From the NCBI GenBank assembly GCA_036271555.1, contig DATBAK010000087.1, positions 1 to 64,000 of the forward strand: a stretch of 64,000 nt of DNA, written 5' to 3'. The notes below the pieces were generated by a model. That model had not been told where the DNA came from and did not search any database. It was given only the letters and a program-made list of their open reading frames with translations. The stretch is from Acidimicrobiia bacterium (lineage in GTDB: Bacteria; Actinomycetota; Acidimicrobiia; IMCC26256; PALSA-610). Numbering within the stretch: position 1 is the first letter of the stretch; the number at the start of each line of letters is the position of its first letter. The position numbers and the translations under genes are program-made. Shown here in pieces: positions 51,258-54,691 of the stretch.

Positions 51258-52391
51258 TCAGACGGCGACGATGCCCTCGCCGCCGACCGCGCTGGCAACG
51301 GTGACGCTGCCCACGCTCGTGAGCGATCCGTCGCTGCCCACGTGGAAGCCGTCGACGATCCCGCTCGCGCCGGTCTGCACGTACAGGTAGCGACCAGCCG
51401 CGCTCGCGGCGGCGTCGACCGTGCCCGCGTCGGTCGTCGTGGCACCGAGCAGCGTGAGCGCGCCATTCGCTGCGGGTTGGACACGGCTGATGGAGCCGCT
51501 CCCCGCGTTCGACGCGAACAGGTAGCCCTGCGCGCCGGCGATCCAACACGTTGCGGCCTGACCGGTCGCGACCGAGTCGAGCGCGTGGATCGTGCCGTCG
51601 TGGTTCAGCTCGAACGACGCGACCGCGTTCGTGCCCGCCTCGGCAAGCACGAGATGACGCGAGTGGTCGAACGCGATCGCGAACGGCACCGCGCCCGGCA
51701 GCGCGTTCACGGTCGGCGCCGACAGCTCACCGAAGTAGCCGACGCGGAACACGTCGACGTCGTTGCCGTTCGCCTTCGTCGTGACGACGAGCTGCTGGCC
51801 CGACGGCGAGAACGCGACCTGACCCGGCGTGTTCACGAACTCCGGTGACGCGGTGGAGTCGAGTCCGAGGTCCGCGCGCGCGTGCCGCAACGGAATCAGA
51901 CGACCGTTGCGGAGCCCGTAGCCCTGCACGACGCCACCGTCGCGCGCGTTCAACACGTACACGAGGTCGTCGTGCACCGCGACGCTCACGGGGAACTGGC
52001 CGCCCGACGCGATCACCTGCCGCCGCGTCAGGTGGTCACCGGACGCCGAGAACACCGAGACGCTGTCGCTGCCCGCGTTCACGGCGAAGAGCAGGCCGTG
52101 ATCGCGGTCGTAGGTCAGGGAGCCTTGCGACGCGAGGTGGTCGACGACCGATCCGTCGAGCACTCCGCCGCGTCCGCCGGTCGAGTAGGTGCCGGCGAGC
52201 GTCAAGGCACCGTTCGCGCCGCGGTGATAGGCGACGACGTGATTGCCGGCCGGATCGTCGGTCTGCACGAAGACGGCATGGTCGGCGCCGGTCGCCGGCG
52301 CGTGGGCCGCGACCGCCGCGAATGCGGGCGCGGGCAATGCGAACGCCGCGCCGAGCGCGACGGTCGCGAGGATGCGGAACGGAGATCTCAT
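51258..52391 (-). CDS. Secreted lactonase-like beta-propeller protein
   Basis: A 377-residue exported protein with signal ILATVALGAAFALPAPAFA. The mature chain is a seven-bladed propeller of the lactonase/YncE kind: VFVQTDDPAGNHVVAYHRG, LLFAVNAGSDSVSVFSASGD, LVYVLNARDGGVVQGY, FSPSGQQLVVTTKANGNDVDVF and YLFASNAGSGSISRV. No catalytic activity can be assigned. The ATG at 52391 has a strong GGAGGAAAT site. It is divergent from an ECF sigma gene and carries a promoter motif matching the sigma gene's own. Confidence 0.85.
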   Translation of the reverse strand: MRSPFRILATVALGAAFALPAPAFAAVAAHAPATGADHAVFVQTDDPAGNHVVAYHRGANGALTLAGTYSTGGRGGVLDGSVVDHLASQGSLTYDRDHGLLFAVNAGSDSVSVFSASGDHLTRRQVIASGGQFPVSVAVHDDLVYVLNARDGGVVQGYGLRNGRLIPLRHARADLGLDSTASPEFVNTPGQVAFSPSGQQLVVTTKANGNDVDVFRVGYFGELSAPTVNALPGAVPFAIAFDHSRHLVLAEAGTNAVASFELNHDGTIHALDSVATGQAATCWIAGAQGYLFASNAGSGSISRVQPAANGALTLLGATTTDAGTVDAAASAAGRYLYVQTGASGIVDGFHVGSDGSLTSVGSVTVASAVGGEGIVAV

Positions 52392-52426
52392 GCATTTCCT
52401 CCGGGATCGATGACAAGTGGTTCTCC

Positions 52427-52457
52427 GTTCAGTGGGCCGGACCGCTCCCGCGTTACA
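52427..52457 (-). promoter_or_regulatory. ECF-type promoter of the propeller gene
   Basis: On the minus strand: TGTAACG (52457-52451), a 17-bp spacer, then ACTGAAC (52433-52427). Transcription would begin near 52420, giving a leader of about 30 bases with the ribosome-binding site. The same two elements occur on the other strand ahead of the sigma gene. Confidence 0.65.
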
Positions 52458-52477
52458 GAAAAGATTTGGCAATCTCG

Positions 52478-52509
52478 TGTAACGAAAGACCGCGCCCGCC
52501 CGACTGAGA
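52478..52509 (+). promoter_or_regulatory. ECF-type promoter of the sigma/anti-sigma operon
   Basis: TGTAACG (52478-52484), an 18-bp spacer, then ACTGAGA (52503-52509); the predicted leader is about 26 bases. With the opposing copy it forms a CGTTACA...TGTAACG inverted arrangement around an inner AGATT/AATCT repeat. Confidence 0.65.
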
Positions 52510-52540
52510 CGCATGACGCGAGCGGCCTACGCTCACCACC

Positions 52541-53182
52541 GTGCCCGGAGCGGACTTCACGGACGACGTCGTCCTCACGAAGGCGCTCACCGCGCGCGAC
52601 GGCGACGCGTTCGCGTATCTCGTCGATCACTACCACTCGGCACTCGTGCGGCTCGCGCAGCAGTACGTTCCGAGTCGCGCGATCGCCGACGAGGTGGTGC
52701 AGGAGACGTGGCTCGCGATCATCCAGGGCATCGACGGTTTCGAACACCGCGCGAGCCTCAAGACGTGGATGTTCAAGATCCTCGTGAACATCGCACGCTC
52801 GCACGGCGCGAAGGAGCACCGCACGATCCCGTTCGCGACGAACGCGACGTCGGCCGACGAGCCGGCGGTCGATCCGCACCGGTTCCGGCGCTTCACGCTT
52901 CACGGGCGCGGGCAGTGGAAGGAACCTCCGTGCCCGTGGCCCGGGCCCGAGCAACGCGCGATCGACGGCGACACGGCGGCGACCATCCACGATGCGATCG
53001 AGCGGTTGCCACCGGACCAGCGCGAGGTCGTGACGATGCGTGACGTGCTCGGTTGGTCCGCCGCCGAGGTGTGCGACGCGCTCGCGATCACCGACGGCAA
53101 CCAGCGCGTGCTGCTGCACCGCGGCCGTTCGAAGGTGCGCGCCACGCTCGAACGCCGCAACGACGAAGGTCGCGACCGATGA
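52541..53182 (+). CDS. ECF-family RNA polymerase sigma factor
   Basis: A 213-residue sigma factor with region 2 at about 13-90 (FAYLVDHYHSALVRLAQQYV, ADEVVQETWLAIIQGIDGFEHRASLKTWMFKILVN) and region 4 at about 145-195 (ERLPPDQREVVTMRDVLGWSAAEVCDALAITDGNQRVLLHRGR). The linker is long and carries FTLHGRGQWKEPPCPWPGPE. The GTG at 52541 is used. Its stop overlaps the start of a zinc anti-sigma gene. It probably activates its own promoter and that of the divergent propeller gene. Confidence 0.93.
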   Translation: MPGADFTDDVVLTKALTARDGDAFAYLVDHYHSALVRLAQQYVPSRAIADEVVQETWLAIIQGIDGFEHRASLKTWMFKILVNIARSHGAKEHRTIPFATNATSADEPAVDPHRFRRFTLHGRGQWKEPPCPWPGPEQRAIDGDTAATIHDAIERLPPDQREVVTMRDVLGWSAAEVCDALAITDGNQRVLLHRGRSKVRATLERRNDEGRDR

Positions 53183-53436
53183 GCGCCGCGTCCGCCTACG
53201 TGTGCCGGCAGTTCGTCGAGGACGTCACCGCGTACCTCGAAGGCACGCTTCCCGACGACGTGACGCGGCTCGTCGAGGAGCATCTCGCCGACTGCCCGCA
53301 CTGCCGTGAGTACCTCGCCCAGATGCGCCGCACGATCGCGTTGACGCACGAGATCGGCGAACGCGACATCGACCGCATGCCCGCCGAGTTGCGCGACCGG
53401 CTCCGCCGCGCGTTCGACGAGCCGGCGCCGGAGTGA
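53179..53436 (+). CDS. Zinc-finger (zf-HC2) anti-sigma factor
   Basis: An 85-residue protein with the ZAS motif EHLADCPHC (HxxxCxxC) near residues 35-43, an upstream helix (CRQFVEDVTAYLEGTLPDDV), and a helical tail. There is no transmembrane segment, so it is a cytoplasmic ZAS protein, a type often redox-sensing. The ATG at 53179 overlaps the sigma stop by 4 bp (ATGA). It should bind and restrain the sigma factor. Confidence 0.92.
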   Translation: MSAASAYVCRQFVEDVTAYLEGTLPDDVTRLVEEHLADCPHCREYLAQMRRTIALTHEIGERDIDRMPAELRDRLRRAFDEPAPE

Positions 53437-53446
53437 CTCGCAGTCT

Positions 53447-54691
53447 CTAGCGCGTCCCGACGAGCTCGTCGCGCGTGCGCTCGGCCTGCTTCTTGGCGTA
53501 CATCAGCGCGTCGGCGCGTTCGATGAGCGTGTCGGCCGGGATCGGCTCGGCCGTCCACGACGAGCCGACGCTTGCGTGCAGCTCGATCACGGCACCGTTG
53601 ATGTCGACGGGACCTTCGAGCGCGAGCCGGATCCGGCGCGCGATGCGCTGCGCGTGCTGCTCGTCGGTGACTCCCGGGCACAGCACCAGGAACTCGTCGC
53701 CACCGAAGCGACCAACGCGGTCCTGCTGGCGGATCGCGGTGTGGAGCCGCTGCGCGGCACAGCGTAGGAACGCGTCGCCGGTCGCGTGCCCGAAGCGGTC
53801 GTTCACGAACTTGAAGCGGTCGAGGTCGACGAAGACGACCGCGGTGCCCTCGGGCCTCGGTGTCGCGAGCTCGTCCTCGAGCATCTGCAGCACGGTCCCC
53901 CGATTGAGGCAGCCGGTCAGCGCGTCGATCGACGCGCGCACCTCGAGCTCGCGCCGGAGCAGCACGCGGTCGGTCACGTCGTTCACGCAGCCGACCGCGC
54001 CGACCGGCGCACCGGTCGAATCGGTGAGCGGACGCAACGACACCACGCACACGCGCTCGCACGGAACCCCGTCGGCGCGCGGCACGTCGAGTCGGAGCTC
54101 CACGTCGTCGGCGCGTTCGCCGGCGAGCGTCGCGGCCGCCGCGCGCGCGAGCAGCGCGCGGTCCTCGGGGACCACGTTCGCGAACTGACCGTCGATCCGC
54201 GCCGCCGGCGCGGTACCGAGGATCTCGAAGAGTTGGTCGTTCGTGAACACGATCGTGCCCGCACGATCGAACTGGAAGATGCCGACCGGCAGCGCGTCCG
54301 AGAGCCGGCTCAGCAGCTCTTCACGCGCGCGCAGCTCCTCCTCGATCCCGACCTGCTCGACGCTGACGCGTTGCATCGTGGTGTGAATGGTCTGGCCGTC
54401 GAGCTCGCACCGGTTCGTGACCTCGACCCAGACCCACCGGCCGTCGGCGCTCTGATAGCGACCGCGCCAGAGCCAGGTCTCGTCGGGTGCGGTGATCATG
54501 TCCATCCACGCGGCGACGGCCGGGCCCTGGTCCTCGGGATGAATGAGCCGCGTCGACGGCTGCCCCACCAGCTGGTCGGGCTGCCAGCCGAGCAGGTCGA
54601 CGACCGATTCCTCGACCCACGTCACGAGCCCCGCGGCGTCCCGCGTCATGGCGACGACCAAGCCGTCGGGCTCCGATTCGACCTCCGACAT
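53447..54691 (-). CDS. PAS-PAS-GGDEF diguanylate cyclase
   Basis: A 414-residue c-di-GMP synthase. There are two PAS domains (about 10-115 with VVDLLGWQPDQLVGQ and 128-245 with GIFQFDRAGTIVFTNDQLFEILG), then a GGDEF domain with an intact RFGGDEF (330-334) and an RxxD inhibitory site (R321-D324) five residues before it. Activity and product inhibition are therefore expected. It lacks membrane segments. The ATG at 54691 is used. It converges on the anti-sigma gene (10 bp). Confidence 0.95.
   Translation of the reverse strand: MSEVESEPDGLVVAMTRDAAGLVTWVEESVVDLLGWQPDQLVGQPSTRLIHPEDQGPAVAAWMDMITAPDETWLWRGRYQSADGRWVWVEVTNRCELDGQTIHTTMQRVSVEQVGIEEELRAREELLSRLSDALPVGIFQFDRAGTIVFTNDQLFEILGTAPAARIDGQFANVVPEDRALLARAAAATLAGERADDVELRLDVPRADGVPCERVCVVSLRPLTDSTGAPVGAVGCVNDVTDRVLLRRELEVRASIDALTGCLNRGTVLQMLEDELATPRPEGTAVVFVDLDRFKFVNDRFGHATGDAFLRCAAQRLHTAIRQQDRVGRFGGDEFLVLCPGVTDEQHAQRIARRIRLALEGPVDINGAVIELHASVGSSWTAEPIPADTLIERADALMYAKKQAERTRDELVGTR

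What the first reader, a model, noticed from the sequence alone, without database searches (positions are those of the whole stretch)
52421..52541. Matching divergent ECF promoters link a sigma/anti-sigma pair to a secreted propeller protein
TGTAACG-N18-ACTGAGA faces the sigma gene and TGTAACG-N17-ACTGAAC faces the propeller gene. Both are placed to give 26-30 base leaders. I saw no other exact TGTAACG spaced to ACTGA in the window. Two matching bipartite motifs at the right distance on both strands are unlikely by chance and would define the sigma factor's target and autoregulation, giving a compact ZAS-controlled regulon with an extracytoplasmic lactonase-like product.
Basis: partly seen in the sequence, partly recalled or inferred. 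Interest (0 to 1): 0.72.

Follow-up and report, generated by a model that had tools for sequence, protein, structure and literature searches.

The report
Sigma factor with matching divergent promoters
An uncultured actinobacterium carries a stress-type transcription switch (a sigma factor and its zinc-binding inhibitor) whose recognition code sits exactly twice in the whole genome, once in front of the switch itself and once in front of a neighbouring exported propeller-shaped protein, and the same code recurs next to related switches across several bacterial phyla.

Summary
TGTAACG-N17-ACTGA (minus, facing the propeller) and TGTAACG-N18-ACTGA (plus, facing the sigma gene) are the only two such sites in the 4.68 Mb genome. 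Three relatives of the same family keep the divergent layout and both motifs although the spacers diverged. De novo k-mer counting upstream of 79 named sigma relatives, chosen by protein only, gave TGTAACG as top 7-mer; ACT followed at gap 17 or 18 in 21 of 36 sites (about 0.45 expected). Lactonase-fold propellers near the sigma in 7 of 80 named loci all carry the motif. A strong motif precedes the propeller in 8 of 13 genomes with the sigma, 0 of 11 without. Refinements: the sigma gene also has a conserved leaderless housekeeping-type -10 (TACGCT) 7 nt before its GTG. The anti-sigma is small with the RsrA-type ligand pattern and the wider group drives mainly thiol/redox genes, so the signal is probably cytoplasmic oxidation rather than envelope stress. 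Lactonase activity is unproven. In other members the motif is also embedded in the sigma coding sequence, about 107 nt before the anti-sigma start. Nothing here is experimental.

The parts
51258..52391 (-). Secreted 7-bladed beta-propeller of the Lactonase family (377 aa, N-terminal signal peptide by eye)
   Evidence: Pfam PF10282 E 7e-13; AlphaFold2 pLDDT 83, Foldseek best hits 1ri6/6nau, also 6igb; orthologues in four family members
52398..52402 (-). Ribosome-binding site GGAGG of the propeller gene
   Evidence: sequence; conserved CCTCC in three orthologous loci
52429..52433 (-). -10 element ACTGA of the propeller promoter
   Evidence: aligned ACT in orthologues
52451..52457 (-). -35 element TGTAACG of the propeller promoter
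   Evidence: invariant in orthologues
52478..52484 (+). -35 element TGTAACG of the sigma/anti-sigma promoter
   Evidence: TGTAAC invariant in orthologues
52503..52507 (+). -10 element ACTGA of the sigma/anti-sigma promoter (GACTG conserved)
52528..52533 (+). TACGCT, TANNNT-type -10 seven bases before the GTG: candidate leaderless housekeeping promoter of the sigma gene
   Evidence: TANNNT present at this place in all four family loci; TANNNT 6-8 nt before 24 of 142 candidate starts, against 4 for the control hexamer
52541..53182 (+). ECF sigma factor (213 aa)
   Evidence: Sigma70_r2 and r4_2; orthologues at 48-71% identity
53179..53436 (+). Zinc-binding anti-sigma factor (85 aa, no membrane segment by eye), ATG overlapping the sigma stop (ATGA); ligands C9, H35, C39, C42
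   Evidence: PF13490 zf-HC2; ligands invariant in seven aligned sequences

Best explanation
This is a self-contained ECF sigma / zinc-binding anti-sigma switch. Proposed working: the small cytoplasmic anti-sigma (zinc held by C9, H35, C39, C42) binds the sigma factor; oxidation or alkylation of its cysteines releases it; the holoenzyme recognises TGTAACG-N17/18-(G)ACTG; it then fires both divergent promoters, raising sigma plus anti-sigma (positive autoregulation with built-in shut-off) and the exported propeller. A leaderless housekeeping-type promoter supplies basal sigma. Shown computationally: the motif pair, its genome-wide uniqueness, its conservation, and its group-wide association with this sigma family and with the propeller. 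Inferred: that this sigma binds it, redox sensing, and what the propeller does (probably hydrolysis of a lactone or electrophile, or a structural role, in the envelope).
For: Two sites only, in the window and in the genome. Both motifs and the divergent layout are kept in G001, G008 and G011 while the intervening sequence changed. CGTTACA is the top-enriched 7-mer upstream of 79 sigma relatives chosen by protein alone, 18 loci against 1.3 expected. ACT at gap 17 (16 sites) or 18 (5 sites) of 36, expected 0.23 per offset, and 0 TGTAAC upstream of 15 unrelated ECF genes. Propellers in 7 of 80 named loci, in several gene orders, all with the motif. Strong motif before the propeller in 8 of 13 genomes with the sigma and 0 of 11 without, Fisher p 0.002; in G207 and G327 the sigma lies on another contig yet the propeller keeps the motif; in G007 the propeller is present, the sigma absent, and the motif absent. 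Anti-sigma ligands invariant. Group targets: Pyr_redox, glutaredoxin fusion, Redoxin, FMN_red, EgtB-like, DUF417.
Against: No transcription start, binding or mutant data. Several genomes hold both sigma and propeller without a clear motif in front of the propeller (G126, G179, G197, G213, G343). In 5 named loci the CGTTACA overlaps a leaderless -10 (TTACAGT), so part of the 7-mer enrichment could have a second cause; the spacing test does not depend on it. Loci are not phylogenetically independent and many are metagenome bins. The redox signal rests on relatives' target genes, not on the window's own target.
Confidence: 0.85

Rival explanations
1. The two TGTAACG arms are the half-sites of a dyad operator for an unknown DNA-binding regulator, not two -35 elements.
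For: The arms form an inverted repeat (CGTTACA-N20-TGTAACG), and in G184 they abut as CGTTACATGTAACG.
Against: The distance between arms varies widely (from 0 to over 25 nt) among orthologues; most relatives have a single arm; the arms keep a fixed 17-18 nt gap to ACT.
Confidence: 0.04
2. Only the propeller promoter is sigma-dependent; the sigma operon is driven by the leaderless housekeeping-type promoter and the plus-strand motif is weak or inert.
For: TACGCT 7 nt before the GTG, with TANNNT at the same place in four loci and at 6-8 nt commonly in the group. In most relatives the motif faces only the divergent gene (18 divergent-facing, 10 sigma-facing loci).
Against: The plus-strand motif is conserved in all four family members, recurs in front of the sigma in 13 of 87 loci, and never together with the internal coding-sequence copy (0 of 29, p 0.004).
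Confidence: 0.15
3. Envelope or extracellular stress is the trigger, as the ECF name suggests, with the propeller as part of the sensing.
For: The only target found besides the operon itself is exported; membrane-bound zinc anti-sigmas also exist (PMC7406223).
Against: The anti-sigma is 85 aa without a membrane segment; zinc-binding motifs are over-represented among soluble anti-sigmas (PMC7406223); targets in relatives are mostly redox enzymes.
Confidence: 0.15

Closest known systems
Streptomyces SigR / RsrA and Corynebacterium SigH / RshA (PMC3489674)
   Same: ECF sigma with a small zinc anti-sigma of the C-H-C-C type; housekeeping plus self-dependent promoters in the operon; redox-gene regulon
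   Different: Promoter GGGAAT-N16-19-GTT there, TGTAACG-N17/18-ACTG here; RsrA equivalog model below cut-off (32.8 against 62.5 bits); the target here is a secreted propeller
ECF16: Caulobacter SigF / NrsF, Brucella BcrS / AbcS (PMC8315932, PMC3511200)
   Same: -35 (T/C)GTAAC with a 16-17 nt spacer; autoregulated; oxidant (HOCl) response in Brucella
   Different: -10 is CGAA rather than (G)ACTG/A; the anti-sigma is a six-helix membrane DUF1109 protein, not a soluble zinc protein
PpgL periplasmic gluconolactonase / YbhE-Pgl 7-bladed lactonases (PDB 6igb, 1ri6)
   Same: Fold (Foldseek TM about 0.7, prob 1.00), export in the PpgL case
   Different: About 17-19% identity; Pgl equivalog not met (26 against 370 bits); an invariant Cys-Trp pair in this subfamily; activity unknown

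Membership tests
ECF (group 4) sigma factors | sigma2 and sigma4 domains only, about 200 aa | tested here: met
   PF04542 27-94 and PF08281 149-198, both above cut-off
ECF (group 4) sigma factors | neighbouring cognate anti-sigma factor | tested here: met
   zf-HC2 gene overlapping by 4 nt (ATGA); physical interaction not testable
Zinc-binding anti-sigma (ZAS) proteins | HxxxCxxC plus an upstream Cys, about 26 residues before the His | tested here: met
   C9, H35, C39, C42 invariant in 7 sequences
Zinc-binding anti-sigma (ZAS) proteins | binds zinc and the sigma factor, redox-labile | not testable with these tools
   needs purified proteins
RsrA (mycothiol system anti-sigma-R) | NCBIfam TIGR03988 above its curated cut-off | tested here: not met
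   32.8 bits, cut-off 62.5
SigR/SigH sigma group | GGGAAT-N16-19-GTT target promoters | tested here: not met
   conserved elements are TGTAACG and (G)ACTG; SigR/SigH consensus from PMC3489674
ECF16 (SigF/BcrS) | -10 CGAA | tested here: not met
   ACTG/ACTA at the -10 position; ECF16 consensus from PMC8315932
ECF16 (SigF/BcrS) | DUF1109 membrane anti-sigma | tested here: not met
   anti-sigma is PF13490
A numbered ECF group of the 2021 re-classification | match to that group's model | not tested
   group models not available; the paper is not held
Lactonase (PF10282) propellers | Pfam gathering score and 7-bladed fold | tested here: met
   49.0 against 21.7 bits; Foldseek
6-phosphogluconolactonase (Pgl) | NF008258 equivalog cut-off | tested here: not met
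   26 against 370 bits
Lactonase (PF10282) propellers | lactone hydrolysis | not testable with these tools
   needs an assay; catalytic residues were not checked

The most novel reading that the evidence does not exclude
This sigma group hides a copy of its own promoter inside the coding sequence of its own region 4 (codons for C/R-N ... E-T-N-Q-R), about 107 nt before the anti-sigma start, so one stretch of DNA encodes part of the sigma's DNA-reading domain and also works as the sigma-dependent promoter of its inhibitor. The window's lineage lacks the internal copy and carries the promoter in front of the sigma gene instead; the two placements never co-occur (0 of 29 against 13 of 58, p 0.004). 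Codon choice supports it: TGT rather than TGC in 24 of 25 cases when Asn follows, 7 of 47 otherwise, and 10 of 32 for Cys-Asn pairs elsewhere. The principle (a sigma-dependent promoter of the anti-sigma gene inside the sigma gene) is known for C. glutamicum SigH/RshA (PMC3489674); a cross-phylum conserved dual-coding version would be new as far as I could check.
Probability: 0.5. Interest if true: 0.7.

Novelty: new member of a known kind. Interest (0 to 1): 0.5.

Why it matters
It gives a testable promoter code for a large sigma group (Actinomycetota, Chloroflexota, Acidobacteriota, Myxococcota and others) for which I found no experimental study in the papers searched. It ties that group to thiol/redox genes and to a recurrent exported lactonase-fold propeller, so a regulon can be predicted in uncultured genomes from sequence. 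The placement of the promoter (before the target, before the sigma, or inside the sigma gene) is a natural series for studying how autoregulatory circuits are rewired.

Tried and rejected
Chance co-occurrence: rejected by shuffles, the genome-wide count and conservation. Dyad operator: rejected by variable arm distance and fixed -35/-10 spacing. Larger regulon in the home genome: relaxed patterns gave only background-level extra sites. Membership in RsrA, SigR/SigH or ECF16: tested, not met. The 7-mer enrichment was checked for a confounder (overlap with TANNNT leaderless -10s, 5 loci); the spacing test does not depend on it. A phylogeny-corrected test of the internal-site residue covariation was uninformative because few branches are well supported. 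Papers were searched for lactonase propellers as ECF targets and for the TGTAAC motif in this group: nothing found.

Full report
OBSERVATION. The window at 52391-52541 holds TGTAACG-N17-ACTGA on the minus strand (52457-52429) and TGTAACG-N18-ACTGA on the plus strand (52478-52507). Shuffled windows give 0.01 such matches on average and none of 100 reached two. The whole genome (G000, 4.68 Mb in 104 contigs) has exactly these two, with none for the reversed control pattern. TGTAACRN{16,19}ACTG also gives just these two. TGTAACRN{15,17}SACT gives one more, at background level. So at sequence level the regulon of this genome is the divergent pair. Weaker sites cannot be excluded.

GENES. The minus-strand gene (51258-52391) is an exported propeller: Pfam Lactonase PF10282, AlphaFold2 pLDDT 83, Foldseek best hits 1ri6 (YbhE), 6nau (6-phosphogluconolactonase) and, ninth, 6igb (PpgL, a periplasmic gluconolactonase) at 17-19% identity. 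The signal peptide was read by eye. The plus-strand operon is an ECF sigma factor (52541-53182) and an 85-residue zf-HC2 anti-sigma (53179-53436) overlapping it as ATGA. C9, H35, C39 and C42 of the anti-sigma are invariant in seven aligned sequences, and profile searches of the PDB find RsiW and RsrA. The RsrA equivalog itself is not met.

ORTHOLOGUES. Three genomes of the same family (G001, G008, G011) have sigma orthologues at 69-71% identity and propeller orthologues at 62-66% in the same divergent layout. All keep TGTAAC in both directions with the -10 in register, although the sequence between has diverged and one has a longer insert. A fourth family member, G007, has the propeller (50% identity) but no sigma orthologue, and its upstream region lacks TGTAACG.

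WIDER GROUP. A genome scan with a sigma-protein alignment returned 80 named loci from Actinomycetota, Chloroflexota, Acidobacteriota, Anaeromyxobacter, Mycobacterium and others; promoter sequence was not used to choose them. CGTTACA, which is TGTAACG pointing away from the sigma gene, is the most enriched 7-mer in the 300 bases upstream (18 loci against 1.3 expected). Of 36 TGTAAC[GA] sites, ACT follows at gap 17 in 16 and gap 18 in 5, expected 0.23 per offset; 15 unrelated ECF genes have no TGTAAC upstream. The group code is therefore TGTAACG-N17/18-ACT(A/G), usually with G before ACT, and the window's two sites fit it. Genes behind the motif include glutaredoxin-thioredoxin reductase fusions, pyridine nucleotide-disulphide oxidoreductases, a redoxin/TlpA-like protein, FMN reductases, an EgtB-like enzyme, DUF417 and glucose dehydrogenases: mostly thiol and redox functions.

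THE PROPELLER LINK RECURS. A propeller profile found members in 7 of the 80 named loci (L075, L076, L077, L111, L129, L131, L142): divergent, upstream on the same strand, or downstream of the operon. All seven have TGTAACG-N17/18-ACT in front. L075-L077 are the same three family genomes as above. In a search of 396 genomes of the phylum, 20 have the propeller. Counting genomes, with the three family members and G007 added, a strong motif precedes the propeller in 8 of 13 that encode the sigma and 0 of 11 that do not (Fisher p 0.002). In G207 and G327 the sigma lies on a different contig, so the motif is not just a by-product of a shared intergenic region. In G184 the two promoters abut as CGTTACATGTAACG.

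CORRECTION ON AUTOREGULATION. The sigma gene has TACGCT at 52528-52533, seven bases before its GTG; a TANNNT hexamer stands at the same place in all four family loci. TANNNT occurs 6-8 nt before 24 of 142 candidate sigma starts in the group, against 4 for the control hexamer. Such hexamers mark leaderless housekeeping transcripts in actinobacteria (established knowledge; papers on it are listed). The ECF promoter therefore probably adds feedback on top of basal transcription. The sigma leader lacks a Shine-Dalgarno site; the propeller has GGAGG.

INTERNAL COPY IN RELATIVES. In 29 of 87 distinct sigma genes a [C/T]GTAA[C/T] element lies in the region 4 coding sequence (C/R-N ... E-T-N-Q-R), typically with GAGAC at promoter spacing, at a median of 107 nt before the anti-sigma start. 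When Cys is followed by Asn there, TGT is used in 24 of 25; otherwise in 7 of 47 (p 7e-12). Cys-Asn pairs elsewhere in these loci use TGT in 10 of 32. Genes with the internal copy never have a sigma-facing upstream promoter (0 of 29 against 13 of 58, p 0.004). These p values ignore relatedness. A SigH-dependent anti-sigma promoter inside sigH is documented in C. glutamicum (PMC3489674), so the principle is known. The window uses TGC GAC here and lacks the copy.

RELATION TO KNOWN SYSTEMS. It works like SigR/RsrA and SigH/RshA (small zinc anti-sigma, feedback) but has a different promoter. It shares the -35 of ECF16 (TGTAAC, PMC8315932) but not its -10 (CGAA) or its DUF1109 anti-sigma. The numbered ECF group could not be assigned because the models are not available here.

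VERDICT. A real, conserved promoter pair of an ECF/ZAS switch. The kind of system is known; the promoter code, the propeller target and the internal copies in relatives appear undescribed in the papers searched. Binding, signal and propeller function remain to be shown.

Noticed in passing
L008, L009, L092, L096, L099, L123, L150, L154 and others, about 522 nt into the sigma gene: TGTAAC-N16-GAC-like element inside the sigma coding sequence, about 107 nt before the anti-sigma start, with biased codon choice (TGT before Asn 24 of 25); mutually exclusive with a sigma-facing upstream promoter.
   Followed up: partly
window 52528-52533 and many sigma loci: TANNNT 6-8 nt before the sigma start codon: probable leaderless housekeeping promoter. 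In L108, L115, L131, L145 and L150 it overlaps the opposite-strand TGTAACG.
   Followed up: partly
propeller, window protein residues C282-W283: A Cys-Trp pair is invariant in nine aligned propellers; in the window protein the Cys lies in an exported protein controlled by a presumably redox-responsive sigma.
   Followed up: no
L060 (G007), propeller upstream region: The propeller without the sigma has a different repeated element, CGCGAACCGTAA(C/G), twice upstream, and another ECF-like gene convergent to it.
   Followed up: no
L092 and L106: A secreted protein family (DUF7482 in L106) lies behind the same motif in Chloroflexota: another possible exported target.
   Followed up: no
window 53447-54691 (-): PAS-GGDEF diguanylate cyclase gene ending close to the anti-sigma gene on the opposite strand.
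   Followed up: no
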